A stretch of DNA of 44,420 nt from Spirogloea muscicola (Eukaryota; Streptophyta; Zygnematophyceae; Spirogloeales; Spirogloeaceae): positions 117,940 to 162,359 of the forward strand of contig WELB01000270.1 of the NCBI GenBank assembly GCA_009602725.1. Direction: 5' to 3'. Positions 2,191 through 30,227 of the stretch are shown piece by piece. The notes below the pieces were generated by a model, which was given only the letters and a program-made list of their open reading frames with translations, did not search any database and was not told the origin of the DNA. Both the position numbers and the translations under genes were made by a program. Every line of letters begins with the position of its first letter. Within the stretch, counting starts at the first letter, position 1.

Positions 2191-3380
2191 CGAGCACTGC
2201 AAGTGCCCTTAATCATTGTGTGGCTTTAGCCAGCCATCCAAGCCTAGTGAGTGGAGCCTCTCAGGTGCGCTGAGTAGGCATCCTCCCCCATTGTACAATC
2301 TTGAGAACCCTTTTCCAATAGAGCTGATTGTGACTGAGGGGCTGGCCTGAGGACTGGCCTCTCACATACGCCGCCATCCTCCCACTTGCGAGATCTGCAC
2401 CTTGACCACTGATGAAGCATGCCATGCAGGAAAGTCCCACGTAGCTAGCAGCACTTTTTTAAAGTTGCTCTTCAGAGGCATTGGTGGTCTGCCACAGCCC
2501 TAGCCTTGCTCGCTGCATGAGTGTTGGTCTTAATATCATGGAGGTACTTGTATTTCGAAGCTGGACACGAGGACGATTGCAAACAGGAAGCGCCTCGTAA
2601 GCACAGGCGTGACCTCAAACAGGGAGTAGCTTAGGAGTAAGATGAGTTCCTTTGCTAGGACAAAGACAGCACCACATAGGTCAGTGAGATTTGTTATGGT
2701 TAGATAGTACACAGCGTGTCCATGCATTGCAGCATTCTCGCCTCTATTGATCTGGCTACCTCTACTGGGATGGTCATACAGTCGCTGCTGGCATGCAATA
2801 TCTACTTCACTGGTTGAAGCTGTGAGCTTCAGGATACCCTGTGCCAATTCACGTAAGAGTCGTGGTATAGAGGCGGGTCACCACTGGGCCCGCTGGGTAT
2901 CACCCACGGAACGCGTGGAGACCAACGTGAGAAGGGCCACGTGTGACCGCGCCAAGGATAATGTGAACTACTGATGACTGGCCACCTGGAAGCATCACGG
3001 CTCCTGAAGATACCATTCCGCCTTCAGGACATTTCACAGCGATAGACCATGCCGGACCCGCCCTTCAGCCGGCTTGGGTCTCGCCAAGCGCCACCACATG
3101 TACGCTAAGATGGGCCTTGATGCTGACCCAATAGCATGACGAGGTTGACAGCCTCGAGCGCGGGAGTAGTCACACGAACTGCCTCCGCCATGGATCGCGG
3201 TATTATGACAAACAAGTGCATCCGAGAGACAGACAGCAGCAGGGTAGACAAGGTGACCGAACCCTGCCCAAAGAGCAATCGCAAGTGTTTATCAAAGTAA
3301 GGGAGGTCAGCGATCGTCGGTCAGCGATCATTCGAACGCGTGCGAAAGCTCGCGATTCGAGGTTAGAGATCATTCGAACG
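2191..3380. other. Intergenic, no gene recognised
   Basis: I see no conserved coding frame, RNA gene or clear repeat array here. Near the right end a 16-base direct repeat containing ATTCGAACGCGT occurs at about 3326-3341 and 3368-3383, just before the LINE fragment. Confidence 0.5.
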
Positions 3381-4004
3381 CGTCGGTCGTCACCACGTCC
3401 ACAATGAGGGGCGATACACCAGCAGCAGTCATTATTAGTTCCGTGCTTCTCGAACAAAAGCAGAAGGGCGACGGCTTCCACGCCCGGCGAGTCGACCTGC
3501 TGGCCACTGGCTGGGGGACCGCGCCTCATTTGCGGACGTGCTGACGACCGACATTCGACCGGGCCGACCCCACTTCATCTCTGCCTCCCAAGGCTGGGCA
3601 TGCAGTGGCCCGTGCCGCTCGAGGCAAGGAGGCAATCTGCCTTTTATCCGCCGGAGGACTCCTCCTTGCCATCGTCGTCCACGGGGCGTTCGACGCTCGG
3701 TGGCTCGCGCTCCTGCACCGGGTAGCGCAGCGCTGTCTCCCGACGTTACCAAGGGGAGCAGGCCCATCTCAACGCAACGTTCGCAGCCCCTATCCTCTAT
3801 AGGCGAGCACTCCTCTCTTTCAATGCGGCAGGCTCTCTCGCTTAGGTGTATCGCATGCTCCTGGCAGCTGCGCTGCAGCGGTCCATGGCACACGCTTTGC
3901 ATCTGCGCGCCGGTCGCGCTTTGGCTACAGCCTCTGGCTTTAGGCAGGGAAACACTACCCCGCAAACTAGTGTCTTTGACCTGCGGCTGCTCAAAAGGGG
4001 ATGA
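3381..4004 (+). mobile_element. Degenerate LINE 3' ORF fragment
   Basis: Frame-shifted remains of the C-terminal part of the LINE polyprotein. In order one can read HARRVDLLAT, then DVLTTDI in another frame, then HGAFDARWLALL, then LHLRAGRAL, and the terminal FDLRLLKRG with a stop at 4002-4004. The same blocks recur in the fragments at 14.3-17.1 kb and 27.5-28.2 kb. At 3385-3420 a short stretch reads DVVTT on the opposite strand, so the 5' end of this copy is inverted or scrambled. No reverse transcriptase domain is present. The copy is 5'-truncated and dead. Confidence 0.7.
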
Positions 4005-4029: not shown

Positions 4030-4950
4030 CACTTGAGTCGTTGTGTGCTTCAGCGCTTTTCTGGCCCCTTTCGTACTTCATGCATAAGTTTGGGCTGGGG
4101 TTATCACAGCCATCGCCCTTCATTGAGAAAGTCTCTCTCTTTTTGCGCCTTCCAGCCCTTTCTGCCCTTGTACAATCCTTTGGGCTGGCCTCTCACAGCC
4201 ATTGCCTTCCATTGGAACAGCTCTTTTCTTCCTGAGACTGGTGGCTTCACCGCTCGGTCAAGCGCAGGCTCCACTGCCTGGCTGACGCGGTTCAATGCAA
4301 CTCACGCCGTTGCAGCAATCTTTCTGTGATCCCTAACATGGCTCTAGATGAGCTCTTTGTCTTCATGGTACTTGCTTAGTTGTGTGTTTCAGCGCCTTCC
4401 GGCCCCTTTGCACTTCGTCCATTCTTTCTGGGCTGGCTTTTCACAGCCCTCGCCCCCTTAAATAAGCGTACTCTCCTTGTCTCGGTTGCTTGCTGCTGCT
4501 ACTTTCGCCTTGCGGCTGCTAAGTAGGATCAGTAATATGAAACACTGAACGGCCATCCTAAGGAATGACTTCTCATTGAATGTGCAGTATCCTTGTCAGT
4601 CTTGTGTGGGCTGGCTCTTTGCAGCCCTCGACAGCTGCATCTTGAGCTTCTGTGTCTACTTTTGTGACTACATCCACTTTTGCAGCCTTGCCTCTACGCT
4701 GTTAGACTCAGGCTCAGGCTGCTATCTCCCTCAAGACTCTCGACGGAGCGACTTAGACTTCCTATTTGGCTGCCTGCTTTGCAATATCTGGCCCCTTTGG
4801 GCCATTCGTGTTGGGCTGTTGGGCCACTTAAGTCGCTGCCTTGCTGCATGCTTAACAAATTTCGTCCCCTCCTGGACCTTTTCATTCTTTTGGGCTGCCC
4901 TTTCACAGCCATCGCCTTCTATTGGAAGCGCGTATCTCTCATACTAGGCG
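4030..4950 (+). repeat. LINE 3' UTR array of hairpin units
   Basis: Several imperfect units of roughly 80-110 bases. Each contains a GGCCCCTTT-like block, then a hairpin of the type GGGCTGGCTTTCACAGCC, then a (T/C)CGCCC block. Hairpins lie at about 4092-4111, 4182-4200, 4430-4448, 4608-4626 and 4892-4910. Near 4500-4530 an LRLLSR-like end of the LINE ORF recurs, so this may be two tails in a row. The orientation matches the LINE fragment just upstream. Confidence 0.7.
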
Positions 4951-6224
4951 CTATGCTGCTGTGCTCAGAGTAGGGTCAAACAACTGTTGCTTAACAGTCT
5001 CACCTGTCATGTAGGATATATCTGGACTGGTATGCTCATTGGAAGTATTGTGCGATGGCTCGGCCTGGGCTGAAGGGCGGGACAGATGCCGATGTGCTCG
5101 CCTCAGCCCCAAGCAATAAGCCAATGATCATTTTGGTGATAAGATCAAATGTTGGCCTGCAAGCGCGGTAGAGTGGCCAAGAGAGAGCGAGACAAGAAGC
5201 TGTTGCGAAGAGGGCAAGAGAGGGACGCCAGTCCCCATGGCATAGACCGATTGTCGTCAGCAGCCAATGTAGCTGGCCATGTCAGGCTGCCTGGCTGATG
5301 CTCTCCTACAAGAGAAAGAAGCTTCGTGCAGAGGGGGCGATGGTTGAGAAAGGCCAGCCCATAGGTCCAGGGGGTTGTCACAGCCGCAAGAGCGTGGCTG
5401 GTGCCCAAGGAGCGAATGGACTGGCTTGCAGAAAGCTAATGTCACATATTGGGAGCAATTTGTGACGCACGGAGGAACCAGAAGTAGGATAGCTTTGCCC
5501 ACAGAGGAGTGTCTCCATGATGGATTTGCAGAAGCTGCGCACCAGCAAGGTACTGCAAACTTCTGCCAGGACGAGCTGCAGCGCAGGGGATGATAGCATG
5601 CACTTGAGGGGAGGAAGATGGGCACGAGTTCAAGGCCTGTCCCTGCTGATGGCCAGTCAATCGACCAAGAGGTCGCCCTGCTCAACTCAACCGTCAGAAG
5701 AGGTCTGCAAAGCTGACTGTGGATGAAGGGCCAACATGATACAGGGGCCCAGCAGGTCTGCGCACGAGGCAGGAGGCTGCCCTCTTGGCTCGCTCTGACT
5801 TCTCTGACGTCCCACAACAACCACTGATGCTCTCCCAGCAGGAGCGGGTCTTCTTTCTTGCCACGTGAAACATCATGCCAAGGCCGCCATGCGTGCCTGA
5901 CAGGACTGGTCTGGCAAGAGCTGAGACTGGCCTTGCTCATTATCTACGTTGCTGCTGCCAGGATGCCACTAGTAACTTCCACCTGCCTGCCCCACGGCGC
6001 TTTGACGACTACAGTGTGTCAAGGCATGTGCAGAGCTACAAGGGAGCCACATGTAAGTGCACGTGCTGCCTTAAGCAGCCAATGACTTGAGCAACCTAAA
6101 GCAGAAAGCTCCATGAGACTGACTTCTGACTCCCTTCTTGTGCAACTTGCCACCAAGCCTCCTTCATAAGTGCTCATTGCATTCAGCGATAGACTACCTC
6201 GTCAATGTGAAGAGAACTCAAATC
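4951..6224. other. 3' flank of helicase copy A, shared with copies B and C
   Basis: No gene is recognised. About 5700-6200 resembles (on the minus strand) the sequence following helicase copies B (23.95-24.4 kb) and C (24.7-24.94 kb): for example GTCTGGCAAGAGC followed by a GTTGCTGCTGCC block occurs here and at 24.79-24.85 kb. The duplicated block therefore reached several hundred bases past the stop codon. The leftmost part (4951-5700) holds nothing I can identify. Confidence 0.5.
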
Positions 6225-9200
6225 TCAAGTAACAAACTCCATGGCACTAAGGAGCTCTCCGTTGGCTTCAAAGTACTCAATCGTGTCCTTCAAGAACACA
6301 TCATGCTGCACTGTGTCGCTATCACAAACAATGCAGCACTGGCGCCTCGCTCGTGTCACTGCCACATTCATCCGGCGCTTTTCAGCAAGGAACCCAACCT
6401 GCAGCACAGACCTCAGTCAAGGTTTTTAAGCTTCCATTGCACGATGGAATAAATTAGACACATGTAGCACCGAAATCATGGCAATGTCTTTGCTATGTAT
6501 GCAGACACGAGCATGTGGCCTGCAATAGAAGCCACCCAAGTTCTCACCTCCCCTCTCTCATTTGATCGGACCATGCTGATAATGATGGCCTCTTTCTCGC
6601 GGCCCTGAAACCCGTCAACTGTTGATACTTCCACAGGAGCCAATGCCTGCTTACTGCCCCTCAGCTCCTTGAGGCATCCAACCTGTCAATGCAAGAGCAT
6701 TCAAAGCTGGTGTCAAAGACCACACAAGATTTTACATTGCTGTCTTTGCAATTGGTACAAGCCCTTTCATCTCAGCATGTAGAGCATGCTGAGATTTAGG
6801 GACGTTGGACGTGCTTGTTTGCGTGGGTTTCCTTCACAGCTTGCCAGGAAAATCTGACCAGCGCTGTCCAGCCTTTCTTGTCAGGCCTACACAAGGCCAA
6901 TGCCCTTCTCAAGGATCTCTCTGTACTTTTGGTGTTGACACTCACGAAATCCAAGTCCTGGAAGTTGTTGTATCAGTAACTCTGGAATTTGGACTTGAGC
7001 AGACCTGTGCACTGTAAGGTGTTATGATGCCAATGCTGGCTGCCGCAACCCCTGCGTCAATTAGCCTCTCAGCGTAGGCGATAACGACCTGAGCCTCGCC
7101 GTCATTCTTTGTGCTGTCCCCTTCCTCCTCCCTCGTCTCCTCCATGTCGCATCTGTCCAATGTCATATGCCGAACAGCATGTGCATGTGAGTACACTCAA
7201 TGACCAGAGCATAGTAAGAAGAAAAGAACTGCCGTATGCATGTTGTGACGATTCCATGTCGTCTGCATAATGACATCACAGATAGAGGTGTGCCAGTTGT
7301 GCAGCAATTTTAGCAAGTGCATTACCTTACCCAGCTGTGTCAACAAGGACAAGCGTAGCTTCACAGGTCGCCAACTGTGACACGCCTTCCAAGTCCAATA
7401 GCTTGTGCCCGGCAACAATGCTGTGAGTTTCACCTGCATGGTGGATTCACCGATTGCAAATCACCCGCTGAGATGATTGCTGAAAGTTGGCAATTGCGCA
7501 CACTTTCCCAGCTCACAAGGGTCCCTTTTGGTATGAGCTTATCGCTGATACGAGGATGACCATGTGACAGAGTTCAGCAGCTCACATGAAAATTTCATGT
7601 GACCAACAGTCAGCTCAGGCACATGGGTTGATTGAGCTCTCAGGTTGAATAAGTAGACTTCTAGTTTGATAAGCAGGCCCCAGACTTCGATATACAACTT
7701 GCCGCCGTAGAGCGCCTCCCATGACCACCGCATGATGCCCTCATTCATGCGATACTGCACGGTCAGGAGCGATGTAATGGTGTCCCCAAAAGAGGCGGAC
7801 AATCTCTCAAAGAGCGTCACCGCTAGGCCCTGCCGCTCGGCCTCGGCGCTCTTGACTGTTGGCGGCAGCTGCAGATGGTCACCAGCAAACACGCATCTCC
7901 TGCCCTTGAGCAACGCGATCCAGCTGGCCGCCTCGAGCGCTTGAGCGGCCTCGTCTATGATGACTACATCAAAGATCGTCTCCTGTCATGATGTGATTTG
8001 CAGAGTGTGACTGTAAAATTATGAGGATAGAATATGATCAGCAACACATGGGCTAATTTCCAAGCAATGATGGCACTAATGATTGCTTGAACACTGGGTG
8101 CCTTGGATTGTCAACTGCTGACCCAATGTTCACTGTCAAGACAATAATTGAAATGTTCTCTTGCTCCTGTGCATCCTTGTACGTCGCTGAGGCCAGTGTC
8201 CAAGTGAGCAACGCCAGTTACAAGTAGAGAGTAAATATGGGTACCACTTACATGCAGGCTGTGGGATAAAGCGCCAGTAAGAGTGGTAAGTACGACTGTA
8301 CTGTTCTTGATGAGTTCAGCAACGGCCTGCTGCTGGCGCTTGCGCTCCTCCTTGGCAAGCCGTCGCAGGTCCTGTCGCAGGCTCCCCTTTTCTCTGCGGT
8401 CCCTGGTTTTCAGAAGCTTGTCTCCAAGTTGCTGCAACTACCACAAGCCCTTGCTTAGTAACTGAGACTACCTCATCACAGTACTGAGACTATCTCATCG
8501 CAATCAGTCATCAAGGTGCAATGCCCTGGAGCTCCTGCAACCCATGCAAAGACAAGCATCTCTGCATCAGCCATGCTATAGTGTGTGCATCTGTGGTCAG
8601 AGCCATCAGCCGAGGGCCAACTTGTGCACCTTCATCTCCTTGCGGACATCGTTGGCGAGGGCACTGTTGTCGCTACGTAGGACTTGGGCATCGAGCGAGC
8701 ATTCGAGCACCTGGGGCAGCAGTCTGGCTGGGTGGCCCAGGCGGACGAGCTTCACTTTCTGCACGGCGAGTCGCTCGACCAGGTTGTCCACAGCGATGTT
8801 CGACGCCGCGCACGCGAGCACTTTGTGCCCCCTGCTCACTTCCTGACAATAGCATAATTGAGCATCTTCTAAGAGCAAACAACCTCTCCATGTATGAATC
8901 CTCATGCAGTTGCTATTGGCAGAGATTGAATATTGATCAAGTCGCTGAGAAAGACTTCACTACCTGCAGAATGATCTCAACAACGGCGGTGGTCTTTCCA
9001 GTTCCAGGCGGGCCATGCAGCAGAAAGACGTCGTTCGCCGACAGTGCCTTGGCCACAGCGGCCTGCTGTGAGTGGTCCAGCTGCTGGTTGAAGAACTTCA
9101 CATTGGCCGGCAATTTAGCAAAAGTTGGAAGCCTAGTACCAAAAAGCGTTGGCACAAGCTCCGCCGCGGGGCCTTGCCGGACCCCTCTGGAGAGCTCCGC

Positions 9201-11100
9201 CAGCGTGTCCTTCATCCTCTTGTATGTAACCTGCGGGACAAGGCTGTCACTAATTAGGCACTCCAGCTTTGGCAGATGCAAGTGATCTGGATCACGAGGC
9301 ACAGTTTCAAGTGTCATGCACGTCTTAGACACAGACCAGTAGCAGGAACAGAAAGACTAGAAATTGGGAAATTTCGATAGCACGTCACTGACAAGGACGA
9401 CTAGATGCCATGGAGCGGCTGAAGAAGGTTCAAGATGGTTTGTTGCTTTGCCTCACGTCGTTTGCCAGCTTCTCAAGGCGGATGGGGTGGTCCAGGCCTT
9501 CCTCAGGAATGTCGTCCATGGCAATTGTGATGCTGGCGTCCTTGAGGCGATACACAACACCCTGCCCCAGCGCCGGGCTTGACGCCTCTGCTTTGCTCGG
9601 CTTCAATGCCACAACGTCGTGAGGCGTGAACTGCGCATCAGAGGAGCAAAGCGACCGTGAGGCTGGACTACAACAGCTGCGCCAAGCACGGTTATGCTGA
9701 CCTCAAGCCTCCATGCCAGACATGATACTAAGCCTGAGCTCGTCATACCCCTCTAGCTCTGTACTATGTACCTTGACCCAGCACCTGGCAGTTGTAGCGA
9801 GTCACATGGCGGGCACCTTGTGGGGGGGAAGGATGTCACCCCGGTTGGGCTCGAGAACCAGCAAGGTCTTGCCAAATAGGCCAGGCGCCGAGTCGACGCA
9901 CTTGAGATTGAGCAGTGTGCGCCCTCGCCGCTGGGCTGTCTCGGGCTTCACCAGCTCCGCGGCCTCGGCCGACGCAGCCAGCTCCGCGTCCTGGAAAGAC
10001 GCCTTGCACATCAGTGGGCAGCGGTGTGAGCAGGAGTGCGAACGAAGCTGTTACACGTGAGATGCCTGTAGACCAAATGCGTCATTTTCAATGCTCTCAA
10101 TACATGCTGTGGGCTACCACTGGATTGAAAAATACGATATCGGAAACCTCAGGGGAGCACAGATACAACAGCACAAAGAAATTGCATTGGCACAATTTTG
10201 CCATAAGTTTGTGATGCCCAACAGGGTGTGAAGAGAAGCTTCTTCTAAGAGAATAAGCTTTGCTTGAAGAGCTTCATGGCCGCTTGAGGACCAGAGAGAT
10301 CCAGTGATGGCACAGGTCGAGACCTTCTCTAGAGCAAGTAGCTTGACCATGCTACGGACGAAGCTCTCAACGGTGAGCGGGTCCGCAGATGGCCCCCTGC
10401 CGATATTCCCAGCACCCTGCTCACTCCTGGAGTCCATGTCCATTGTGCCACTGCCAGGCTGCAGCTTCCCGTGCACGTTGAGCCCCAGGAGAGACTCGGC
10501 GAGCTCGCCCAAACGAGCATCGTTGAGCCCAGAGTCTTCCATTGGGACAATGACATGGCGCCCCTTTGCGGACGGTCGCATAATGGTGAGCATGCGTCGT
10601 CCCTGGCTGTCATCCGTGCTCCCATGCTGCAAGCCGTGATCCTCCGCTGCCTCTGCAGCATCCGGCCGGCGTTTGCATGAGAAGGGACATTGCAATCGCT
10701 GCCATGTAGCCTCTCCATAGCATAGCAAGACAGCACCAGCCAGCGAGTAGTTTGGGTCAGAATCTCGATCGGACAGTCGGACTTGGTCTCAAGTTGAGCG
10801 AGTGATGGGTTGTCAGCGAGCTGCCAATGGCGTGTGCCTTTGCTTTGAGTCACCTATGGAGCCACTTATGCGCAATTCCTGAAGCTGGCTAATTCAAGAG
10901 GCAGGCACGGAATGAGGACAGGCCATCACCGTGGAGGGCGGCGAGCTGCCGCGCCGTTAGCGATGGGGGAAAGGAGACGCTGGCCACAGTCGTGGGGTCC
11001 TCCTCCAATGAGGTACTGGCGCCGTCGGCCTGCAGCTGGGCAGGCTTGCCGGCTGTTTGCGAGGAGGAGGTCCGCCGAGGCTGGTGAGGCCGGCTCTGAG
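6225..11100 (-). CDS. IGHMBP2/SMUBP-2-like SF1 helicase, copy A (apparently intact)
   Basis: Proposed exons, 5' to 3': about 11100-10930 (start unresolved), 10652-10324, 9990-9817, 9630-9457, 9230-8964, 8842-8630, 8431-8252, 7982-7696, 7420-7331, 7152-7005, 6682-6548 and 6398-6225. All joins keep phase, giving about 723 residues from exon 2 on. UPF1-like SF1B motifs are complete: Walker [11 protein letters not shown] (about 8991-9017), Ia [19 protein letters not shown] (7944-7955), [36 protein letters not shown] and VTRARR. The N-terminal block resembles the IGHMBP2 1B/stalk region (LANDVTYKRMK, TLFGTR). No R3H or AN1 domain is seen. IGHMBP2 is a 5'-3' RNA/DNA helicase linked to ribosomes and tRNA; the role in this organism is inferred. 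No ATG is evident in frame with exon 1, so a small first exon is likely. Donor and acceptor around 7696/7420 are shifted relative to copies B and C. Confidence 0.88.
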
Positions 11101-11330
11101 GGCTATAATGACTTCTATTATGACTAGCCGGACTGGGTGCATAATGCAGAGATCCAAAGCCACACCCCGGACTCTGACAAGTCGAGAAGCAGCACTTGGC
11201 TAAGACTCCAAAGCTGGGGACCGAGCGAACGTGAGGTGGGAGGCGCAGAACAGGACGGCACGCAGCGAGGGCCGCCGGAGCGCGTACACCAATTGCCGGT
11301 GGAGGGTCCTACCGTGTAGGATTCAGGGTT
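11101..11330. other. Upstream region of helicase copy A
   Basis: The frame of exon 1 stays open into this stretch without a visible ATG. It probably holds the 5' UTR or a further short exon of copy A. I see no promoter motif I would defend. Confidence 0.3.
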
Positions 11331-11510
11331 TAGGGGGTTTAGGGTTTAGGTACTCAAGGGCCCAGAGCATGCGCCGGTGCCGCGCTTCCTGGCCGTCGCC
11401 GCGGCCTTCTTGGCGGCCGCGGCCTTCTTCGCCGCCTCGGATACCATGCGGCCTGGACACGGGCGGCGGCCCCTAAACCCTCAATCCCCTAACCCCTGAC
11501 TCCTGAACCT
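11331..11510. repeat. Inverted telomere-like repeats flanking a GC-rich core
   Basis: About 11331-11350 holds degenerate TTTAGGG units (GGGTTTAGGGGGTTTAGGG). About 11471-11510 holds the complement (CCCTAAACCC, CCCCTAACCCC). They face each other across about 120 bases of GC-rich sequence with a duplicated GGCCGCGGCCTTCTT motif. TTTAGGG is the usual telomere repeat of plants and many algae, so these are interstitial telomeric tracts. Confidence 0.6.
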
Positions 11511-11639
11511 CTTCCATCCGGGGGCCGCCGCGAGCCCGCCGCCCCGCCGGAGGCAAGCGGCCGAGGCGGTCGCCGGTCCCGCGGCAGGCCGCCACCGCGG
11601 AGCCCACGTTGGCGCGGTCGGCCGTCCGGCGGCGGCGCC

Positions 11640-11800
11640 GGGCGGCGGCGAGACACGGAAAAGAGACGACAAGAATACGGCAGCGGTGTGGCTTGGCCTG
11701 GGTTGCCCACATTCTTGTCACAGTTTCTCTGACCTGCGGCTGCTCAACAGGGGTTGCTGAGTGAAGGAAGTGCTGAAAGCTGGAAATGGCCAGCCCAAAG
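11640..11800 (+). mobile_element. LINE 3' terminus remnant
   Basis: The window reads FSDLRLLNRGC and a stop at 11758-11760, matching the terminal peptide of the other LINE copies. An inverted hairpin unit (AGCTGGAAATGGCCAGCCC, about 11778-11797) follows in minus orientation. Only a few tens of bases of ORF can be recognised. Confidence 0.55.
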
Positions 11801-12099
11801 AAACCGAATGGACAAGGTCCAAAGGCGCCTAAAACCAACACAGCTAGACACGAGACTACTGCAGATGGAAGCTTTAGGGCCTCTGCCTGCGTGATACCTC
11901 TGACAGACTAAGGTCGGGAGCAGCACTACTAGAGCAGGGCTAAGTCCACATCAATGGCTATGAGATATGCTTGTGTCATTCTGACGAGATATCGTTGACT
12001 AGCAAAGCAAAGGGAGCGAGTGGCTGTTCACGTTGTGGACACCGTAGAGACATGTGCCACTCGCTTCCTGCCAGTAGCTTTCAACAAGAATAGAATACG
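11800..12099. other. Spacer between LINE tail and F-box gene 3' end
   Basis: No gene or repeat is recognised. It presumably includes the 3' UTR of the F-box gene on the minus strand. Confidence 0.3.
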
Positions 12100-14068
12100 T
12101 TAAATGGCAGTCTCATGATGAATGCGAAACTTGGAAAAGTAATCATGAGCTAGACCATGGCCGGCCTCCCATCGCTCTTCCACCCTCTCCAGCCGAGCTG
12201 CTCTTGCACAGTGCAGTGTGATGTTTGCAACATCTTGCGGCAGCCCTTTGACCTTGGTGTAAGAGAGGCCGGCCACATGCACATATGCTAGTCGGCTGCA
12301 AGTGGCTAGGAGGTCGGCTATCATCTGGATGAAATTATTCTCGGGGCAACACCAGCGACAGCATAAGCGCACAACTTGCAGGCTTGTGCATGCGCTCACC
12401 AAGCAAGAGATACTCTGATACGTCCCCTCACGTCCACATATGTTTGAGTTCATTGCCACCTCTGGAGGGCATGGAAGTGCCAGTAATCTGTGCTTAACGC
12501 ACAATCTATCCAAATCCTTGCGATACGGCACACCAAGCTCCAGGCTAAGAAGTCCACCGCGATCCGCAAGGACTGTTGCCCAGTCCTTGTTTGCTTGCAG
12601 GTGAGAGATGTCAGCAATTCGAAGTAATGAAAGGCCAGAGCACCAGCCGCCGAGCTTCCAGAAGCCATTCACACTTTCGTCAATGGCCCAACACTTGTCA
12701 AAGTTGACGAAACGGAACGATAAAAGACTGGTAGGTACGGTCAAGTCCGTCGTAAGGAAATGAAGGCCATGAAGACTAAGGGCCACCAAGTGGGGGCCTT
12801 GGCCAAGAAAGCACCCAAAGCCAAAGCTGTCACCGTCCACCAAGTCAACTTCAGCACCGAAAGGGATGAAAGCTCGTTGAAACCGACCAGCCACGGATCG
12901 AGGGCACCACCTGAGCCAAGAGATGTGAAGTTCTCGCAACTGCCAGCACGAGGCAGCTAGGTCCTTGATAGCATCAGTGATGTCATCATCTGCTGAGATG
13001 CATATCTCTACTACCTGCAATTTCGAGAAAATGGCTGTAGCTGCCTCTGGCGGCAGCCTGTGGCTAATCCAGGGCCTATCGATGAGCAACCGCATCAGCG
13101 AGCTGCATGATGACATCAGCTCTTTGAAGGAGACTACCGAAAGCCTTGAATAGGCTTGGAAGCCGACCTGCTGCAGCAGCTGGCAAGCGGAGGCTAGCCA
13201 ACAATCCCGGCGTCCATGATATTCCCACAGCCAGTCAAGTAGAGCGATTAGCTGCGGCAAACTCTTGGCAATGCACAGGAGTCCTACGTCTGTGAGAGGA
13301 CCAGAGGGCTGCTTGCATCTGCCAAGCTCCAGCTCCGTGAGACGCTTGCACGAGACAACGATAATTTGAATGTCCGCGTCTGCAGAGGCCGTTATCGATC
13401 ACACCAGCCCATCAATCGCCCACCTTCTTACAAGAAGGGAAGGCCAAATTGCACTGCAATGACAGGGTATTGTCCACCTATATCAGGAATCTAGGTCAGA
13501 GCACGTACTACATCACGGAGTAGCACTTACCAGAGAAGTCGCACTTAATTATGGAGAGGGTCTCAAGGGCCGTGAGCTGGGCAATGACGGGAACCAGAAC
13601 GGCCGGGGGGCACTGGAGAATTAGCACTCGCAGTATCCGTGCATGGGCAACAAGATCATCCAGACCCTTAATTGCTCTGGCGGTACGTTAATGTGTTCAT
13701 AGTGATGGCATTCAGACCGCAGGGTCACCCGCAGATCTGAGAGTGCAGTGGCGGCCGTCAGCGAGCGGAAGTCGGAGAGATTCGCGCAGAAGTGGACGGT
13801 AAGGCGGAGCCGTGCGAGGTTCGGGAAGGCTGTGGCCAGCGCCGGGCCGAGCTGCCGCTTCTTGAGCACGGATGGCCCCTGCCGTTTACTGAGCTGCCTG
13901 CGCTTGCGCAGCGCGAGCTTGGTGACGGAGGCCTTGACCAGGCGGCGCCAGCGGCGGCAGACGCGCGCGGGCGGGAGCCAGTCGGAGGCGCCGAGCGGGG
14001 CGTGGGCGGGCGGCGGCGGCGACGCGGGCGAGGATCGCCGCCAGGCACTCGTCCGGCAGGCCGTCCAT
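12100..14068 (-). CDS. F-box / leucine-rich-repeat protein (two exons, two apparent frameshifts)
   Basis: Exon 1 is 14068-13531 and exon 2 is 13379-12100. The intron GTAAGTGC...CTCTGCAG joins in phase 1. The start reads MDGLPDECLAAILARVA, a typical F-box opening, and the box continues as ARVCRRWRRLVKAS but in another frame. The shift lies in a GCC repeat near 14010. A second shift is needed near 13700 to reach the LRR stretch VLILQCPPAVLVPVIAQLT. Exon 2 is one clean frame with irregular leucine-rich repeats (KRLTELELGRC, LVALSLHGLHFL, LRIADISHL, LQVVRLCCRWC). F-box proteins are substrate receptors of SCF ubiquitin ligases; the substrate is unknown. Expected length is about 600 residues. The shifts may be assembly errors in GC-rich sequence or early decay. 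Confidence 0.75.
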
Positions 14069-14109
14069 GGCTGGCGGAGCGGCGTGAAGACTGCGGCTGA
14101 GGAGAAGGA

Positions 14110-14336
14110 AAGAGAGAAGAAAGTGCTCGCCCATTGAGGATAGGGGCTGGAAAAAGCCAGCCCAAAAAAGAATGAACAGAGTACGAGAAGGGCAGGGCCA
14201 GGGAAAAGAAATGAAGCAAGTGCTCGCCCATTGAGGATAGGGGCTGGAAAAGCCAGCCCAAAAAAGAATGAACAGATAATGAGAAGGGGGCCAGGGGAAG
14301 CGCTAAGAAAAACAAGCACACAAAGAAACAAAGCAG
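14110..14336 (-). repeat. LINE 3' UTR with two hairpin units, directly upstream of the F-box gene
   Basis: Two near-identical units contain GGGGCTGGAAAAAGCCAGCCC (about 14142-14163) and a close copy (about 14239-14260), each next to GTGCTCGCCCATTGAGGATA. They follow the LINE stop codon at 14337 in minus orientation and end about 40 bases before the F-box ATG at 14068. They may now supply its 5' UTR or promoter. Confidence 0.7.
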
Positions 14337-14663
14337 TCACAAATCACTCAGTACCCATGCTAAGCAGCCGCAGATCAGAGATGCTAGGCTCCTGGAAGTG
14401 GGTCCCCTGGCCAGAGCTAGAGGCAGCAGCGAGGGCTCTGCCAGCACGAAGGTGCAGCGCGCGGGCCATAGAAAGTGCTCGCCCATAGACCTCTGCAGCG
14501 AGACGGCCAGGCGCATACGATAAAGAAGCAAGCGCGGCCAGATTGACATACGATACACTTGCGCCAGCGACCCGGCTGCAGGAAAGTCTACCGGCTCCCC
14601 ATGGAAGCGACGGGCGACGGTGTGGCGGGCGAGCTGGGTGAGCAGCTCGAACCACCGAGCGCC

Positions 14664-14676
14664 CAGCGACCCATGG
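14664..14676. repeat. Target-site duplication, 3' side of nested LINE
   Basis: This is the partner of 15637-15649: 13 bases with one difference. It sits directly after the 3' terminal ACGCATTT of the nested element, as expected for target-primed reverse transcription. Confidence 0.75.
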
Positions 14677-15636
14677 AAATGCGTGTATATTAAGAGATGG
14701 GGAGGCCATGTGTGGCCAAGTACAAAGGCAAGCACATTGGACAAATGTACGTCACCTGCTGCTAAGCTGACCCGCTCAGTAACCACGAGTCAGCACATAG
14801 AGGTCGCTAGCTGACGCTCGAATACCGGACGGCAATTGACTAGCTCTTGTGCCAGCAGCTAAGGCTCGACCAGCTTTCTGATGCAGAGCATACGCCTGAG
14901 CTCGTTGCAGACAGGTTGACACTCGACGTCGCAGAAATGACAGATAGGCTGCCGGCATACCCATCTGGGCTGGGAGCATATCCTCGCGTCGTGCATATCC
15001 CAGACTCGCTATGTTCTCGAGTAGGGTATGGAAGCGAGGACCCAAGCAGCCGAAAGTGTCGATTGCGGCCGGGAGGAGGTGGTCACTGCGGGGGTAGTCT
15101 GAGTAGTGTCGGAGCTTTTTCTGCTCAGCACCTCCCACTGCGTGGCCAGCAATGTGTGTGGAAGCGGAACTCTTGTATGCCTCAGTCACCACCACATCAA
15201 CCAAAGCTCGTGGGCCTCCGCCAGGTTGTACACCCACAATGTCCAGGGTGCGACGGTGATGGCCTCCCTGGGAATCCGTGGTGATGGGCATTACATTGCT
15301 CACTTCAACGATGGCGCGGTAGCCGGCGTCGCGCATCAAGCCCGCCAGGGCGTCCCGTAGGAGATTGTGGACGCCCACCACCTCAGGGCCTGTGGGACAC
15401 CGCAGCATGTGGGTGGCTAGGTCTCTGCCCTCCGTACGGAAGCCACACTCACACTGAGTTACTCCAATCAGGCAGGTCGGGGGCAGGCCCAGGAACAGCT
15501 GGAGAAGCGTCCGGAATGCTTCAGGGCTGATTTTGAAAGCGTTGTGGATTGCGTGTGTGGTGAGCCAATCCGTTGCCCCAGGCGTTGCGAGCGATGTGAG
15601 ACGTGCCAGACTCCTTGGATTGGTCTTGATATCCGG
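14677..15636 (-). mobile_element. Nested 5'-truncated LINE with target-site duplication
   Basis: About 960 bases inserted into the older LINE. The ORF is clean from the 5' break at 15636 to the stop at 14776. It contains a CxC...H...C zinc-knuckle-like block (CECG...ATHMLRC), HNLLRDALAGLM, then a PD-(D/E)xK-like pattern (RRTLDIVG...ALVDVVVTEAY...KKLRHYSDY) and the terminal SDLYVLTRGY. A similar Cys/His plus restriction-like endonuclease layout is known at the C-terminus of R2-type LINEs; assignment here is by pattern only. The 3' UTR is about 99 bases and ends ATCTCTTAATATACACGCAT, without a poly-A run. Confidence 0.75.
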
Positions 15637-15649
15637 CAGCGCCCCATGG
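15637..15649. repeat. Target-site duplication, 5' side of nested LINE
   Basis: CCATGGGGCGCTG on the minus strand matches CCATGGGTCGCTG at 14664-14676 with one mismatch. Removing the sequence between them restores a continuous reading frame (IDTHGAL-GARWFELL) of the older element. Confidence 0.75.
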
Positions 15650-16744
15650 GTGTCAATTGCCAACTGGAAGAACCCAGTCTTCCCGCGGATGGTCGGCGTA
15701 CTTGAGCTCTTTAGCCCGAGCGGCGCAGGCGACCGCATACCCTACCTCGGTGGCACATTGGGCTGGGTGTGAGCGGTCGTATGCGTCGGTGGTCACCACG
15801 TCCAGGAGAAGACGTGGCCCGTCGGCCTGTGGGGTGGCCACCAGGTCTACGCGACGGGCGTGGAGACCGTCGGCCCTTCCCTGGAGCGGCATGACGCCGG
15901 AGTGCTCCGCTGCCACCGAGAAGCCAGCCTCCACCAGGATGCCATGCATCGCATCGCAGAGGCGGTCGTGGGCCGCTGTCCGCTCGCCGCCGTGGGCGCA
16001 GCGCAGAACATGAGCGGCCAGCTCCCCTGACTCGGCCCTTCGCTCGCTGCATACACACTAACGCACGCCCTGGAGACATGGAAGCGGCAGTCCCAGGAGC
16101 CGGTGGACGGCAGTGCGAAATACCTCATCGGGGACTCATCGGGGGAGAGTGAGGGCGTCATTGATGGGGAGGGCCTGAAGTCACGCCGCTGCCCTCGGGG
16201 AGCAGGCCGATTGAAGTCTCGCGCGCCCGCGCAAGTTGGCCTCGGGGAGCTGTAGCACGGCGGTGGTGTAGGCGGCCTTGTCGACCACGGCCGCGAAGCG
16301 CGCTTGGACGCGCAGGTCAGCGGTGTTCGCGAGGTGCGCAAAGGAGATGGGCTCTCCAAAGAGAGAAGGCGCGCGCGGTGCGCATGAAATTGAAAGGGAG
16401 GCCAATGCTAGCCTTACAGATGTCCTGGTAACAGGGTAATGAGTTGGCTAAGAGGGGCACTAACATCCTCGAGTAAGCACATACATATTTGACAAGCTAA
16501 GCTGAGGAGCCAGACCATCACACGGAAGCCATAAATATGGCCCAATGCGCGCTCAGCACGCTACTGTATCGTGAGTCCCTGGGAGCGCTGCAGACTCAAT
16601 ACTAGCCGGCTTCTATAGCAAGCAACGATTGCTTGTGGAGCTTGAATGCCCTAAGCTACCCGCCCGACTACGTCACGGGCATCGACAAGTTGTGGCTGGC
16701 CATGGAGGAGGGATGACCACTTCATTCCGTAATTGCCAAAATTC

Positions 16745-17150
16745 TTATGGCGCATGGGGAGAAATGATCGCCCCGGGGGTGGTCCTCATAATGTCGCTCC
16801 TTCCTCTTCTCCGTGTGATGCGTCGCCCACCTGGCACAGTCGGCGTGGGTGCCCCTGGTTGGAACGCATCAATAAGAACGACGTCAAGGAGGGGACGAAG
16901 CCCATCGCTCCGAGGGGTGGCAACCACATCCAGATGCCTGATGTAAGATCTGCGGCGCTTCTGGAGTACCGGCGTGATGCCCGGCACCTCCATGGTAGCC
17001 TGCCTCGCGCACAAAGCCATACAAAGCATCTCTTAGAAGGTTGTGGGAGGCGTTACATTCAAATCCCTCAGCACGTCGAAGCATGTGAGCCGCCAACTCG
17101 TCCTCCGGTCGATGGCCACATTCACACTGTCAGATGCCAGCCAAACAAAG
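16745..17150 (-). mobile_element. LINE ORF fragment
   Basis: In two frames one reads CGHRPEDELAAHMLRRAEG, ASHNLLRDALYGFVREAGYH, then RHLDVVATPRSDGLRPLL and LDVVLIDAF. These blocks match the HNLLRDAL and DVVTTDAY regions of the neighbouring copies. The fragment lacks both ends. The stretch 16406-16744 to its left holds no recognised feature. Confidence 0.65.
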
Positions 17151-17189
17151 TGGGGGGAAGAAGTGGCTCTCCCCACAAAATTTGCCTAT

Positions 17190-17510
17190 GGAAAAGCGTG
17201 TATGAAGAGATGAAGGGCCTGTGTGGCCAAGTACAAGATGCCCCCCATTGGGGCAAGGGCTGTGAAAGCCAGCCCGAAAAGTATTGACAAAGGGTCAAAG
17301 GGGCCACAATGACGGAGGGGCCTGGGGGAGAAGAAGATGTGGCACTCCCAGGCTTTCCTGGAGGAAGGTGAAGATGGTGGTGGACGGCCGTCCGTAAGAG
17401 GTCGTCGGAAAGGTCGTCGGAGGTAGTGGAATCAAAGTTGGTCAAACGGGAAGCGCGGCCAGATTGACTGGTGGCTAGGAAAGGCCAGCCCAAAGGAATG
17501 GACGGTCAAA
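17190..17510 (-). repeat. LINE 3' UTR hairpin units and terminal tail
   Basis: Two hairpins in minus orientation lie at about 17472-17491 (GGCTAGGAAAGGCCAGCCC) and 17257-17275 (GGGCTGTGAAAGCCAGCCC). They are followed on the minus strand by CTTGTACTTGGCCACACAGG and CATCTCTTCATACACGC, the same 3' terminus as the nested LINE. The block at 17440-17510 is an inverted near-copy of 18250-18320. Confidence 0.6.
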
Positions 17511-17729
17511 CCAGTCGGTGGGTGGTTGCCCCCCGTCGTATGTCGCTGAAGACATTGGAGCCTGAGCATGCGCCCCTCGACGCGCGACGGACGCGAAGGA
17601 CCAATCCCAGCCAAGCAGGGAGTAGCGTAGCGGACTGGGCTAATCGTCAATCAGTAGTTAGCGGTCAGCGGACGATGTCACCGTTGATGACCATAAAAAT
17701 CGGGAACCGGCCGGGTGTCACGCCCTTTC

Positions 17730-18063
17730 TAATAAATATGGCCCTCCATCTCTTAATACACGCATCTTTGTGGTACCCTTTCCGCCCCGGACGTCTTGCC
17801 CGTCAAAATAACGAGCCCAATCGTCTCTTAGCAGTAAGTAGCCGTAGAGACGAAGCCAGCGCATGGGTGTCACGTCTAAGCCCGGTCTCCAAGTGTCACG
17901 TCAAAGCCGCACTAGCGCCACGGGCGGCAAGGCCCTGCGGCGGGCCGGCCCGGCGGCATGCCATGCTCGGGCGTGCTAGCTAGCATGGGGCTTGGCGGGC
18001 CAGCCTCGGGATCTCCGCCCCTGCGGTTCCTCCGACCTGCGGTTGCTCCATAGAGGGTGCTGA
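17730..18063 (+). mobile_element. LINE 3' fragment
   Basis: Starts with a CCATCTCTTAATACACGCAT tail (terminus of one copy) and ends with SDLRLLHRGC and a stop at 18061-18063, the ORF terminus of another. Little coding frame is left between, so it is a compound of two degraded pieces. The stretch 17511-17729 holds nothing I recognise. Confidence 0.5.
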
Positions 18064-18079
18064 GTATTTCGTAGCTACT

Positions 18080-18530
18080 TAATCCCCTGTGTGCTTTAGC
18101 GCTTTCCCTGGCCCCGGACTGTGTCAATTCTTGTTTTTGGGCTGGCCTCCCTCTCCTGCAAGCGTCCTTCATCTTTTGCCCCGAGCTCGCCTCTCCAAGG
18201 ACCTTGACTTGGACCTCTCTCGGTGCTTCTGGGCCTTCGCACTCCGGCTCCATCAGACCTTGTCCATTCCTTTGGGCTGACCTTTCCCAGCCACCAGTCA
18301 ATCTGGCCGCGCTTTCTTCTGGGCTGGCCATTCACAGCCCCCGCCCCCTAGAGATTACTTCTTTTATTCTTCTTTCTGGGCTGGCCACTTACAGCCATTG
18401 CCCTCTACTGAAAGCGTCTTCCTTCTCTCGGGGCTGGCTTTCTACAGCCATCGCCCTCTACTGCAAGAGCCTTCTTCACTGTCCCTGTCAAAGCCCCCGC
18501 CCCTTTGGAAGAAGTCACTTTTTCTTTCAA
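18080..18530 (+). repeat. LINE 3' UTR array, at least four hairpin units
   Basis: Hairpins lie at about 18274-18292, 18321-18340, 18378-18396 and 18431-18449, all GGGCTG(G/A)C...CAGCC with 6-8 base loops. A half unit (GGGCTGGCC without its partner) lies near 18137. Between hairpins run pyrimidine-rich spacers and C(T/C)GCCC blocks. The array directly follows the LINE stop codon and ends close to the start of helicase copy B. Confidence 0.7.
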
Positions 18531-23943: not shown

Positions 23944-24941
23944 AGTTATTTGCCTGACAAGGCACGCAAAGCACTCATGAAGGGGACTTGATGGCGACAT
24001 GCAAAAGCCGAGAGCCAGGTGACAGCCAGTTGCATGGAGGTGCTCGGCGTTGCTACATCTCAAATCAGCACATACATCTCACGTTGCTCTCTTGTGGTTC
24101 TGCACTTCCCTTGACACACTTCTCTTGACAATGTTTATGTCATGTGCTGAGGGCAGGCAAGTGGAGAACACCAGCAGCAGCTTGGCAGCAGCAACTTGGA
24201 CAGATAAGCAGGGCAGTTTCAGCTCTTGCCAGACCAGTCATGGCAGGCACGTCTGGCTGCCTTTGCATGAGGTCTCAGGTGGCAAGCAAGCCCCTGCTAG
24301 AAGATGCTAGTGATAGTTGTGGCACATTGAAGGAGGCAGCGCGAGGTGAGCAAAGAGGTGTACAGGTTTTTGGCCTGCAATATTCTGCTGGCCCTTGTCG
24401 CCTCTGCAGCCCCCTTATTAAGCAAGAATGCAGCACTTCTTCGACTGACCCTGCCGCTATCACCTCCTACCAGCCGCAGTCGACATCTTTGGCTGCAGTG
24501 GTCCTCGTTTTGTAACCTTACTCTAGGGTGTTGCTGGCCCTATTCCGGCCCATTCGGACTTATTACCACTCTTTTGGGTTAGCTTTCACAGCCCTCGACC
24601 CATTTGTATGAGCTCACTCTCTTTGATTGGGCACCTCCTTTAAAGGCAAGAGCTGTGGCAAGACGGGCTGGCTGTTCACAGCCCTTGCCCCCTTTGAAAG
24701 AAAGTGTACTCCCAGAACCCCTGAACCCACGAGGAGCTTACTTGCCACCTGAGACCCCATGCAAAGGCAGCAGGACGTGCCTGCCATGAGTAGTCTGGCA
24801 AGAGCGGAGACTGGCCCTGCTCAATTTGTCCAAGTTGCTGCTGCCGAGCTGCTGCTGGTGTACTCCACTTGCCTGCCCCTCAGCACATTGACAGGCACAT
24901 TAGAAGAAATTGTGTAAGGGAAGTGCAGAACCACAAGGGAG
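23944..24941. other. Centre of the inverted helicase duplication (B/C flanks and spacer)
   Basis: About 23944-24330 (+) and 24941-24720 (-) are homologous 3' flanks of copies B and C: GCAAAAGCCGAGAGCCAGG, GGTTCTGCACTTCCC and GGCAGGCAAGTGGAG occur in both. The spacer between holds two LINE-type hairpin units in plus orientation (about 24575-24593 and 24665-24683). No gene is recognised. Confidence 0.65.
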
Positions 24942-27540: not shown

Positions 27541-28205
27541 ACTGTCGAAGGCGTCACATTGTCACCACGTCCAGGATGAGGCGCGGTCCGCCAGCCAGTG
27601 GAGTGGCCAGGAGGTCGACCCGTCTGGGGTGGAGATCGTCCTCCTTTTGTTGTAGCGGCATTGGCGAGGAGTTCTCGGCGGCCACCGAGAAGCCTGCCTC
27701 ACGAGGATGCCATGGCGTCGCGGAGGCAATTGTGCGCAGCGGAAACTTCGACCCCCAAACTTGGTTGTTACCACGCCGGGCGGAGGCCTACGAGTCATCG
27801 CTGGCGTGGTCACCACAGACGTGGTTGCCGGCTCCATTCTGGGGCTTCCTGCTTCGAAGGCTGGGCATGCAGCAATGGACGCTCGTTGCGAAGAGGCTAA
27901 GTACGCGGACCACCAGGAAGGGGACGAGTTTCTTTCACCGGCCGTCGATGCACGGGGCTTATGGGCCCCAGTGGCTAGACCTGTTAGCCTGGCTTGCACG
28001 ACGGGCTGTGTCCTGCAGGCGGGGCTGGCGGACCGACTTCAACGCCGCAGGCTCGCTAGAGCAGGCTTTTCACATGTGCCTTCCCACATCCCTCCAGCCT
28101 TCCATGATCCACGCCTTGCATCTGCGTGCTGGCCGTGCTCTAGCTGCAACCTTTGGCTTTCGTCAAGGGGATTGCCAGGCTAGTCGTTTGACTTGCGCCT
28201 ACTAA
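27541..28205 (+). mobile_element. LINE 3' copy with inverted 5' part
   Basis: 27541-27720 reads on the minus strand: AGFSVAAENSSPMPLQQ, PRRVDLLATPLAGGPRL, LDVVT. 27720-28205 reads on the plus strand: GVVTTDVV, EEAKYADHQEGDEF, MHGAYGPQWLDLLAWLARR, LHLRAGRALAATFG, ending RLTCAY with a stop at 28203-28205. The upstream part of the ORF is thus flipped relative to the downstream part, with the switch near the DVVTT codons. This is the form made by twin priming in human L1. Confidence 0.7.
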
Positions 28206-28345
28206 GCAGAGGTTACCAAGTTATTATCCTACATGACCCTTGCTTAAACATGTCTTTCAGCGCTATTCAGCCCCTTCGGACCTTGACTATCTTCTGGCTG
28301 GCTGTTCGCAGCCCGCGCCCCCCTTGTAGAGAGCCACTTTCCCAA
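28206..28345 (+). repeat. LINE 3' UTR, single hairpin unit
   Basis: After the stop codon comes a TTTCAGCGCTATTCAGCCCC block and a hairpin GGCTGGCTGTTCGCAGCC at about 28295-28313, then CGCGCCCC. It has the same order and orientation as the other tails. Confidence 0.65.
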
Positions 28346-29020: not shown

Positions 29021-30227
29021 ATGGCGTGGAGCGAGGCCCTGCTGGACGCCGTGCTGGTGCCGCCGGGCGTGGCGGCGCTGCTGGCGTACCACGTCTGGCT
29101 GGCCGCCGCGGTGCGCCGCCGCCCGCTCACCACCGTCGTCGGCGTCAACCACATGGTCCGCCGCGCCTGGGTGCACCACATCATGCGGGTCAGTGCTCGG
29201 CCCGCCCCCCAAAAACTCCAACAGAGCTGAGGTCCCGAACGTGCCTCCACCACGACTTCGTCTGCCTCTGGGAAGAGTCGAACCCCCGCCCTCTGCAGCA
29301 TGGGACCTCGCCCGGCAGCAGAGCCAGCTCCGGCTCCAGCTCCTTCATGCGCCGCCGCTATCGTTGCAGGAGAACGAGAAGCGCAGCATCCTGGCGGTGC
29401 AGACGCTGCGCAACTGGGTGATGGCCTCGTCGCTGCTGGCGTCCACCGCCATCGGCCTATCCACCGCCATGGCCGCGCTGCTGCGCTCCGCTCTGGACCC
29501 CGTCGTGCGGCAGGCGCTGCAGAGCTTCATCGTGGGCGCCGACTCCGACGCCGTCATCGCCGTCAAGTTCTTCTGCCTCCTCCTCTGTTTCCTCTGGGCC
29601 TTCCTCTGCTACATCCAGGTGCGCTGCGCCCTGGTCCTCGCTGCCCACACCACCACGTAAGTTGATGTGCTTCAGGACAGAGCTCCACATAGCCTGTTAT
29701 ACATCTAAGACTTGGGACTTGTATAAGTCGTGCGCTTGAGTATCTAGCTTGGCACACGCTGGCGGCCCCTTGGCCTGTTGGTGCCTCGGCCGGGCGGGCG
29801 CGCCCCAGCGCGTGCCGTTCCGTGTGGGGTGACGCCGCAGAGCATCCGCTACGTCAACCACGTCAGCTTCCTGGTGAACATCCCCATGGGGCCCGAGCTG
29901 CCGGGCTTGACGCCAGACTACGTCGCCAAGGTCCTGGAGAAGGGCTCCGACTTCTATACCGTCGGCACGCGCGGCTACCACGTCGCCTTCCCGCTCATCT
30001 GCTGGCTCTTCGGCCCCATACCCATGCTGGTCGTCTCCCTCCTCATGGTTGGTCTACTGTACAAGCTCGATACGCCCGGCGGCTACCACGCACCAACTGG
30101 CAGCAGCGGAGGCACTGCAGCGTTTGTTGGGCCTGCCTCCGAACACCGCAACAACGGCAACAGCGCTGATACTCTTGATAGCGTTCATGTAGTTGAGAAC
30201 AACCACCACCTCAAGCACGGGCTCTGA
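29021..30227 (+). CDS. DUF599 family membrane protein
   Basis: Exons 29021-29188, 29370-29618 and 29841-30227; all introns are GT-AG and phase 0, giving 267 residues. The ATG is the first in a frame that opens MAWSEALLDAV. It has the DUF599 signature GVNHMVRRAWVHHIM and KRSILAVQTLRNWVMASSLL. Four hydrophobic segments are visible: about residues 5-30, 70-95, 120-140 and 185-212. The C-terminus is hydrophilic, rich in Gly, Asn and His. DUF599 proteins occur in plants, algae and bacteria, and no biochemical role is established. The length is in the usual range. The gene lies between the LINE-rich island and the DPH4 gene and looks intact. Confidence 0.85.
29264..29325 (-). other. tRNA-like sequence in DUF599 intron 1
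   Basis: On the minus strand GGCTCTG (29325-29319) and CAGAGGC (29270-29264) can pair with one mismatch. A T-arm-like GGGGGTTCGACTCTTCC lies before the 3' side. The length of about 62 bases leaves no room for a normal D arm. It is probably a decayed tRNA or tRNA-derived repeat rather than a working gene. Confidence 0.3.

What the first reader, a model, noticed from the sequence alone, without database searches (positions are those of the whole stretch)
4030..18530. LINE family whose 3' UTR is an array of short hairpin units
Around 17 copies of a GGCTG(G)...CAGCC hairpin occur in the window (examples near 4092, 4182, 4430, 14142, 14239, 17257, 18274-18449, 24575, 24665, 28295). Almost all lie just after a LINE stop codon and in its orientation, with unit number varying from none (nested copy) to four or more. 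Structured 3' UTRs are known to be recognised by the reverse transcriptase of R2-type LINEs, and a variable array of hairpin units would be an unusual form of such a signal. It could also be co-transcribed noise kept by template slippage.
Basis: partly seen in the sequence, partly recalled or inferred. Interest (0 to 1): 0.75.

Follow-up and report, generated by a model that had tools for sequence, protein, structure and literature searches.

The report
LINE 3' hairpins that nest together
The repeated hairpin is the 3' end of a large group of R2-like jumping genes, and the apparent hairpin arrays look like many very short copies that landed in one another, often inside an older copy's hairpin loop.

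Summary
The hairpins are real and hugely over-represented: 15,383 strict palindromes in the 153-Mb genome against 77 for the reversed pattern. They mark the 3' end of six sibling LINE families; three more siblings have another hairpin there. Of 21 loci picked by LINE protein alone, 20 have a unit within 350 nt downstream. The LINEs encode a reverse transcriptase and a C-terminus whose predicted fold matches R2 proteins. The 'array' is not one 3' UTR: neighbouring units differ in family (11 of 19 pairs) and orientation (7 of 19), and single units have empty sites and target-site duplications. A 24-nt and probably an 11-nt insert sit in the window's own LINE ORF. New here: the hairpin loop is an insertion hotspot. 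F2 tails abut the 3' half of an F1 hairpin 37 times per 5,430 such words, against 2 per 2,675 for a control word. In 17 of 37 an F1-type half-hairpin lies on the far side, six of them fused. Within the main families the stem core hardly varies, so covariation evidence is thin. RNA recognition is inferred.

The parts
3176..4001 (+). LINE C-terminal coding remnant (frames broken)
   Evidence: tblastn with six LINE C-termini
4089..4134 (+). hairpin unit, F3-like
4173..4217 (+). hairpin unit, F3-like
4418..4457 (+). hairpin unit, F1-like, preceded by the CAGCGCCTTCCGGCCCC block
4883..4930 (+). hairpin unit, F3
14121..14176 (-). F2 unit, second of two head-to-tail F2 units
14218..14272 (-). F2 unit behind the F2-type LINE remnant
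14359..14690 (-). LINE C-terminal remnant holding two micro-insertions
14472..14482 (-). probable 11-nt micro-insertion matching the F2/F7 3' end, flanked by CTATGG (14466-14471, 14483-14488); the copies shown from four other loci lack it
14523..14546 (-). 24-nt micro-insertion of the F5 3' end with 9-bp duplication TATCGTATG (14514-14522, 14547-14555); empty site in L023
14776..15741 (-). C-terminal ORF (CCHC + RLE-like) of sibling family F10, whose 3' end has a GGCC/GGCC hairpin
16362..16512 (-). 3' end of sibling family F8 (AGGCT...GGCCT hairpin)
17243..17287 (-). F1 unit, no ORF end found upstream
17451..17502 (-). F5 unit, no ORF end found upstream
18263..18319 (+). F5 unit; may split an older hairpin (TTTTTGGGCTGGCC at 18134, TTCTGGGCTGGCC at 18317)
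18314..18363 (+). F3-like unit
18370..18421 (+). F3 unit
18431..18474 (+). F3 unit
24425..24568 (+). LINE C-terminal remnant
24664..24701 (+). F1-like unit
27746..28175 (+). LINE C-terminal remnant (query lies in this copy)
28292..28339 (+). F1-like unit shortly after the stop codon at about 28,205

Best explanation
The unit is the 3'-terminal hairpin (arms GGGCTG/CAGCCC, then 25-29 nt and a CTTC-type tail) of several sibling RLE-type LINE families. Shown: its place at the element's 3' end; RT and R2-like C-terminal coding in the same contiguous DNA; strong 3' bias of copies; single-unit insertions with duplications and empty sites; mixed arrays; the hairpin loop as a recurrent target. Inferred: the RT binds the hairpin and starts target-primed reverse transcription in the tail; most copies stop after tens to a few hundred nucleotides; the nicked strand opposite CTTT-type sites can pair with the CUUC/CUUUC tail of the RNA.
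For: Unit within 350 nt downstream of the LINE C-terminus on the same strand in 20 of 21 protein-chosen loci (L018/L019 are one locus twice, L014/L015 nearly so). Identity stops after the tail in the listed F1 and F2 copies. Consensi of F1, F2, F3, F5, F7 (29, 25, 7, 10, 11 sequences) each hold an ORF ending DLRLL/DLMLL (read by eye); F6 read in one locus. F1 words, at most 2 mismatches, both strands: tail 5,376, ORF end 2,092, RLE region 454; RVT_1 first-look candidates 985, any RT family. Long matches across the insert: 11 of 97 short copies, shuffles mean 2.24, maximum 6 in 200. Filled/empty pairs with 5-12 bp duplications. Mixed neighbours. Loop hotspot 37/5,430 against 2/2,675, odds ratio 9.2, Fisher p 5e-5; reciprocal junction F1 tail to F2 hairpin half 20 times, one with an intact hairpin, not normalised. 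RT E 9e-11; R2 entries Z 9.6-11.2, next 7.4.
Against: No RNA, binding or enzyme data. The stem core hardly varies within the main families; the long-range outer stem is supported in F2 and F7 only (18 of 26 and 4 of 8 copies above 95% of shuffles), not in F1, F3, F5 (2 of 36, 2 of 14, 1 of 12). 86 of 97 short copies show no long match, and 4 of the 11 that do match with common element words (16-40 occurrences in the held DNA), leaving 7. 20 of 37 loop junctions show no F1 half-hairpin within 620 nt (longer insert, decay, or an F1 copy truncated in its loop and landed in the F2 tail); 6 of the 17 positives are fused hairpins with an F1 lead and an F2-like 3' side, which could also be hybrids. 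The T-run before hairpins also receives joins (29, 18 of them without a longer lead), so the loop is not unique. Extents partly reflect a variable consensus stretch 70-100 nt from the 3' end.
Confidence: 0.85

Rival explanations
1. One reading: a LINE family whose 3' UTR natively contains a variable tandem array of hairpin units used as a multi-copy RT signal.
For: In the window several arrays run in LINE orientation behind LINE remnants. The F3 consensus (7 sequences) has an extra hairpin upstream, and the F7 consensus a low-agreement one near its 5' end.
Against: Arrays mix families and orientations; single units have empty sites and duplications; the F1, F2 and F5 consensi hold one unit.
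Confidence: 0.07
2. The short units are a separate non-autonomous element (SINE-like) that borrows the LINE 3' end and is transcribed on its own.
For: Many copies begin near the T-run before the hairpin (extents 48-62 nt), as a fixed 5' end would.
Against: Extents run from 23 to 349 nt, the latter near the 360-nt limit of the test, without one fixed start; inserts of 24, 20 and probably 11 nt begin inside or after the hairpin; T-rich starts also fit microhomology at the 5' joint.
Confidence: 0.08
3. On the loop hotspot only (compatible with the best explanation): it reflects a short sequence preference (CTTT), not the hairpin's structure.
For: Duplications elsewhere often begin CTT or CT; the T-run also receives joins.
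Against: The hexamer CTTTTC stands in 22 of the 37 loop junctions. In the lead it stands in 3 of 29 matches, each time with further bases between it and the tail, so none is a join at that hexamer; about 5 would be expected from its frequency in 21 sampled F1 hairpins (lead 3, loop 13). Numbers are small.
Confidence: 0.6

Closest known systems
R2-group RLE LINEs
   Same: RVT_1 domain, then a CCHC + PD-(D/E)XK-like C-terminus with R2-like predicted fold.
   Different: Copies are dispersed; thousands of very short copies; the loop of its own hairpin is among the targets. Clade within the RLE group not determined; PMC4640811 (abstract and introduction read) says the HERO clade contains many non-specific members.
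Stringent-type LINEs with a 3' tail stem-loop (zebrafish ZfL2; eel UnaL2 recalled)
   Same: Stem-loop in the 3' tail; in ZfL2 the protein binds it (PMC4176376, abstract seen).
   Different: Those are L2-clade elements with an APE-type endonuclease (APE recalled); here the tail is CTTC-like and the endonuclease RLE-like.
Zepp clusters of Chlorella/Coccomyxa
   Same: Clusters of nested LINE copies (PMC3446292, passages seen).
   Different: In Coccomyxa about one Zepp cluster per chromosome (same passages); poly(A) tail and L1-like type are recalled. Here insertions are dispersed and the hairpin loop is hit.
R2 protein acting on branched DNA
   Same: [quoted passage not shown] the R2 EN domain resembles archaeal resolvases (PMC3636483, abstract seen).
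   Different: There the junction is an integration intermediate; here a palindrome in target DNA is hit. Extrusion is not shown.

Membership tests
RLE-encoding non-LTR retrotransposon | reverse transcriptase domain upstream in the same element | tested here: met
   RVT_1 E 9.1e-11 in L036; L036 overlaps L003, so RT, CCHC, RLE-like part and hairpin lie in one contiguous stretch, with frame breaks
RLE-encoding non-LTR retrotransposon | CCHC motif and PD-(D/E)XK-like endonuclease at the C-terminus | tested here: met
   invariant E78, R95, D98, D113, K143 among six sequences (which of them are catalytic is my reading); predicted fold Z 9.6-11.2 to seven R2 entries, next row 7.4. No sequence-level hit for the C-terminus in Pfam or PDB
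RLE-encoding non-LTR retrotransposon | 5' truncation and target-site duplications (target-primed reverse transcription) | tested here: met
RLE-encoding non-LTR retrotransposon | RT phylogeny placing it in a named clade | not tested
   no reference RT set was used
R2 proper | insertion at a fixed site in 28S rDNA | tested here: not met
   copies lie in random stretches, LINE ORFs and hairpin loops
Dualen/RandI | an additional APE endonuclease before the RT | tested here: inconclusive
   Pfam finds only RVT_1 in the one 541-aa frame scanned
Stringent-type LINE 3' tail | conserved stem-loop close to the 3' end shared by related elements | tested here: met
Stringent-type LINE 3' tail | own protein binds the stem-loop and needs it | not testable with these tools
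   needs biochemistry
Zepp | poly(A) 3' tail (recalled) | tested here: not met
   tails in the F1 and F2 listings are CTTC/CTTTC-like

The most novel reading that the evidence does not exclude
The hairpin works twice: as the RNA handle for reverse transcription and, once in DNA, as a preferred landing site, because the resolvase-like RLE recognises the extruded or unpaired hairpin and nicks at the stem-loop border (GGGCTGG^CTTTTC), where the exposed GAAAAG end primes on the CUUUC tail of the next RNA. The element thus manufactures its own target sites, and the arrays are the record of this feedback.
Probability: 0.25. Interest if true: 0.8.

Novelty: new variant of a known kind. Interest (0 to 1): 0.58.

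Why it matters
It explains how a compact genome fills with over fifteen thousand tiny palindromes: 3' ends of R2-like LINEs, some only 11-100 nt long, that land in one another. Micro-insertions this small can leave in-frame scars (the 24-nt insert plus its 9-bp repeat adds 33 nt) and would be easy to miss in repeat annotation. The loop hotspot gives a natural test of whether RLE enzymes, which act on four-way junctions in vitro, also choose structured DNA as targets in a genome.

Tried and rejected
Rfam: no hit at gathering scores in the window. Sequence searches of the LINE C-terminus in Pfam and PDB, and of the RT frame in PDB: none. Long-range outer stem as a general feature: rejected outside F2/F7. 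The alignment of short hairpins A3 shifted the arms between families, so I made no pair counts on it. Double-sided changes are read by eye, no test: fourth pair U-A in F1-F7, C-G in F9 (3 rows) and F10, U-G in F8 (5 rows); fifth pair G-C in F1-F7, A-U in 2 of 5 F8 and 2 of 4 F10 rows, unpaired or unclear in the rest and in F9; outer pair G-C in F1/F2/most F7, A-U in 2 of 5 F8 rows, U-G in F6, absent in F3, F5, F9, F10 and three F8 rows. The long open frames around C54 are runs of N. The organism is named by no call; an alga is only my guess, from a DUF599 gene and recall. Literature: a search for self-insertion with five terms listed no paper; the listings show no title or abstract start about loop-targeted LINE arrays. 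This does not show absence in print.

Dropped rows: L001 lies in the window and was left out of the counts; L018 duplicates L019 and was left out but counted; one search dropped 7 of 129 copies (unaligned or repeated) and used 97 of 122 for the match test. Of the 24 rows I use eight as clear insertions; the rest are alignments between similar units or lack a clear repeat. Two of the 37 loop junctions (L052, L054) are cases already seen in L030 and L009.

Full report
What is there. The window (G000:C270:117940-162359) lies in a 153-Mb genome in 471 contigs. The strict palindrome GGCTGG-N4-20-CCAGCC occurs 15,383 times, the reversed control 77 times. Twelve random 9-kb stretches drawn before reading (two all N, 72,121 readable bases) hold 84 units on both strands against 9 in the reversed control.

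What a unit is. The LINE C-terminus has 10,018 first-look candidates; 150 were scored and 22 fetched, one of them the window itself. Of the other 21, chosen by protein alone, 20 have a family unit within 350 nt downstream on the same strand (two pairs of loci are near-duplicates). blastn with six 3'-end words gave 167 places: F1 62, F2 36, F3 30, F5 18, F7 17, F6 4. In the F1 and F2 listings identity runs through the hairpin, a further 25-29 nt and a CTTC/CTTTC tail, then ends. The ten bases after the last conserved word, tail included, are 98% and 84% pyrimidine in blocks of five, later blocks 46-64% (75 ends). Consensi of 313-375 nt for F1, F2, F3, F5 and F7 each hold an ORF ending DLRLL or DLMLL plus four residues before the stop (read by eye; F3, F5, F7 rest on 7, 10 and 11 sequences). 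The F3 consensus has an extra hairpin upstream, and F7 a low-agreement one near its 5' end. Sibling families F8, F9 and F10 have hairpins of other sequence (AGGCT/GGCCT or TGGCT/GGCCT, GGCC/GGCC) at the corresponding place.

What the LINE is. RVT_1 at E 9.1e-11. The C-terminal 318-aa model has mean pLDDT 66; residues 161-290 lie mostly at 74-90, with a dip to 54-60 at 141-160. Its seven best PDB rows are all R2 retrotransposon entries, Z 9.6-11.2, the next row 7.4 (a second look at Foldseek's matches, and Z under 8 can mean only a common arrangement). RT, CCHC, RLE-like part and hairpin lie in one contiguous stretch of contig C2, with frame breaks. So this is an RLE-type LINE group; the clade was not tested.

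Why the arrays are not 3' UTRs. Of 19 neighbour pairs within 150 bp in the window and random stretches, 7 are in opposite orientation and 11 of different families; the 5 pairs of the window itself are all in the same orientation. Of 63 units, 23 follow a LINE ORF end, 40 do not. Word counts for F1 fall from 5,376 (tail) to 2,092 (ORF end) to 454 (RLE region), each with at most two mismatches on both strands; the words differ in conservation, so the slope is approximate. Eleven of 97 short copies match 8 or more bases across the insert (shuffled mean 2.24, maximum 6); four of these matches are common element words, seven are not. Of 24 filled/empty rows I take eight as clear: a 24-nt F5 end in the window's LINE ORF with TATCGTATG on both sides; a 53-nt F2 end in an F1 hairpin, 9 bp (L019); a 54-nt F7 end in an F1 UTR, 9 bp with one base different (L004); F2 copies in an F1 loop (L009, 86 nt) and in F1 UTR (L009, 203 nt, CCTTTG); an F2 copy in an F1 hairpin, 12 bp with one base different (L030); F8 copies with TTTTC (L008) and CTTCTAA (L026).

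The loop as a target. Several nested cases sat in the loop of an older hairpin, so I asked it genome-wide. An F2 tail followed within 20 nt by the 3' half of an F1 hairpin occurs 37 times, out of 5,430 copies of that half-word. The same tail before an F1 UTR word occurs 2 times out of 2,675: odds ratio 9.2, p 5e-5. One of the 37 holds an intact hairpin, and two were already in my sample (L030, L009). All 37 were fetched with 620 nt upstream. Seventeen show an F1-type half-hairpin on the far side: 11 separate halves and 6 fused hairpins with an F1 lead and F2-like 3' side (L048, L050, L061, L065, L069, L073). In 8 of the 11 the repeated bases begin right after GGGCTGG, some with private variants on both sides (CTATTCACAG in L059, CTTATC in L072, where about 20 nt were inserted); in 3 (L054, L064, L074) the repeat is short or unclear. 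The other 20 show no such half within 620 nt. The reciprocal junction (F1 tail, F2 hairpin half) occurs 20 times, one with an intact hairpin, without a normalising count. The T-run in front of hairpins also receives tails: 29 matches, 11 with a longer lead and so adjacent units, 18 without; the copy number of that word was not counted. Sequence preference and DNA structure cannot be separated with these data.

RNA structure. Folds of the nine short family words contain the inner hairpin in the best or a listed close structure; F1b and F2c fold best in another way. In 150-nt consensus context F1, F2, F5 and F7 keep it, F3 folds differently in part. Within F1-F7 the core stem hardly varies and gives no covariation. 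Against F8-F10 three pairs change on both sides in some rows, by eye only. An outer stem is supported only for F2 and F7. The claim that the RT binds the hairpin therefore rests on analogy with R2 and ZfL2 (PMC4176376, abstract), not on a test here.

Verdict.

Noticed in passing
window 12100-14069 (-): F-box/LRR-like frames whose putative start lies right after the two F2 units at 14121-14272, so LINE ends may form the gene's 5' region. The label is my reading; Pfam found nothing in the 12103-13398 frame.
   Followed up: no
window 29748-30227 (+): Frame with a DUF599 match, E 1.1e-25.
   Followed up: no
window 10114-10788 (-) and 19007-19537 (+): Two diverged frames sharing RPSAKGR...VPME...LGEL.ESLLGL, apparently a duplicated gene or element.
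   Followed up: no
window 8488-9285 (+) and 20375-20848 (-): Two related frames sharing [14 protein letters not shown]; possibly antisense of a conserved gene.
   Followed up: no
L018 and L019; L014 and L015: Very similar LINE loci on two contigs each (C39/C107, C3/C11): haplotigs or segmental duplication.
   Followed up: partly
G000, e.g. C235:98040, C267:76737, C412:18957: Ten RVT_1 loci at the top with nearly equal scores, nine of them in 1,237-aa open frames: perhaps a young retroelement, not compared with the LINEs here.
   Followed up: no
L017 about 2550-3000: Very long CT/GA microsatellite next to an F7 LINE 3' end; a pyrimidine tract like the tails.
   Followed up: no
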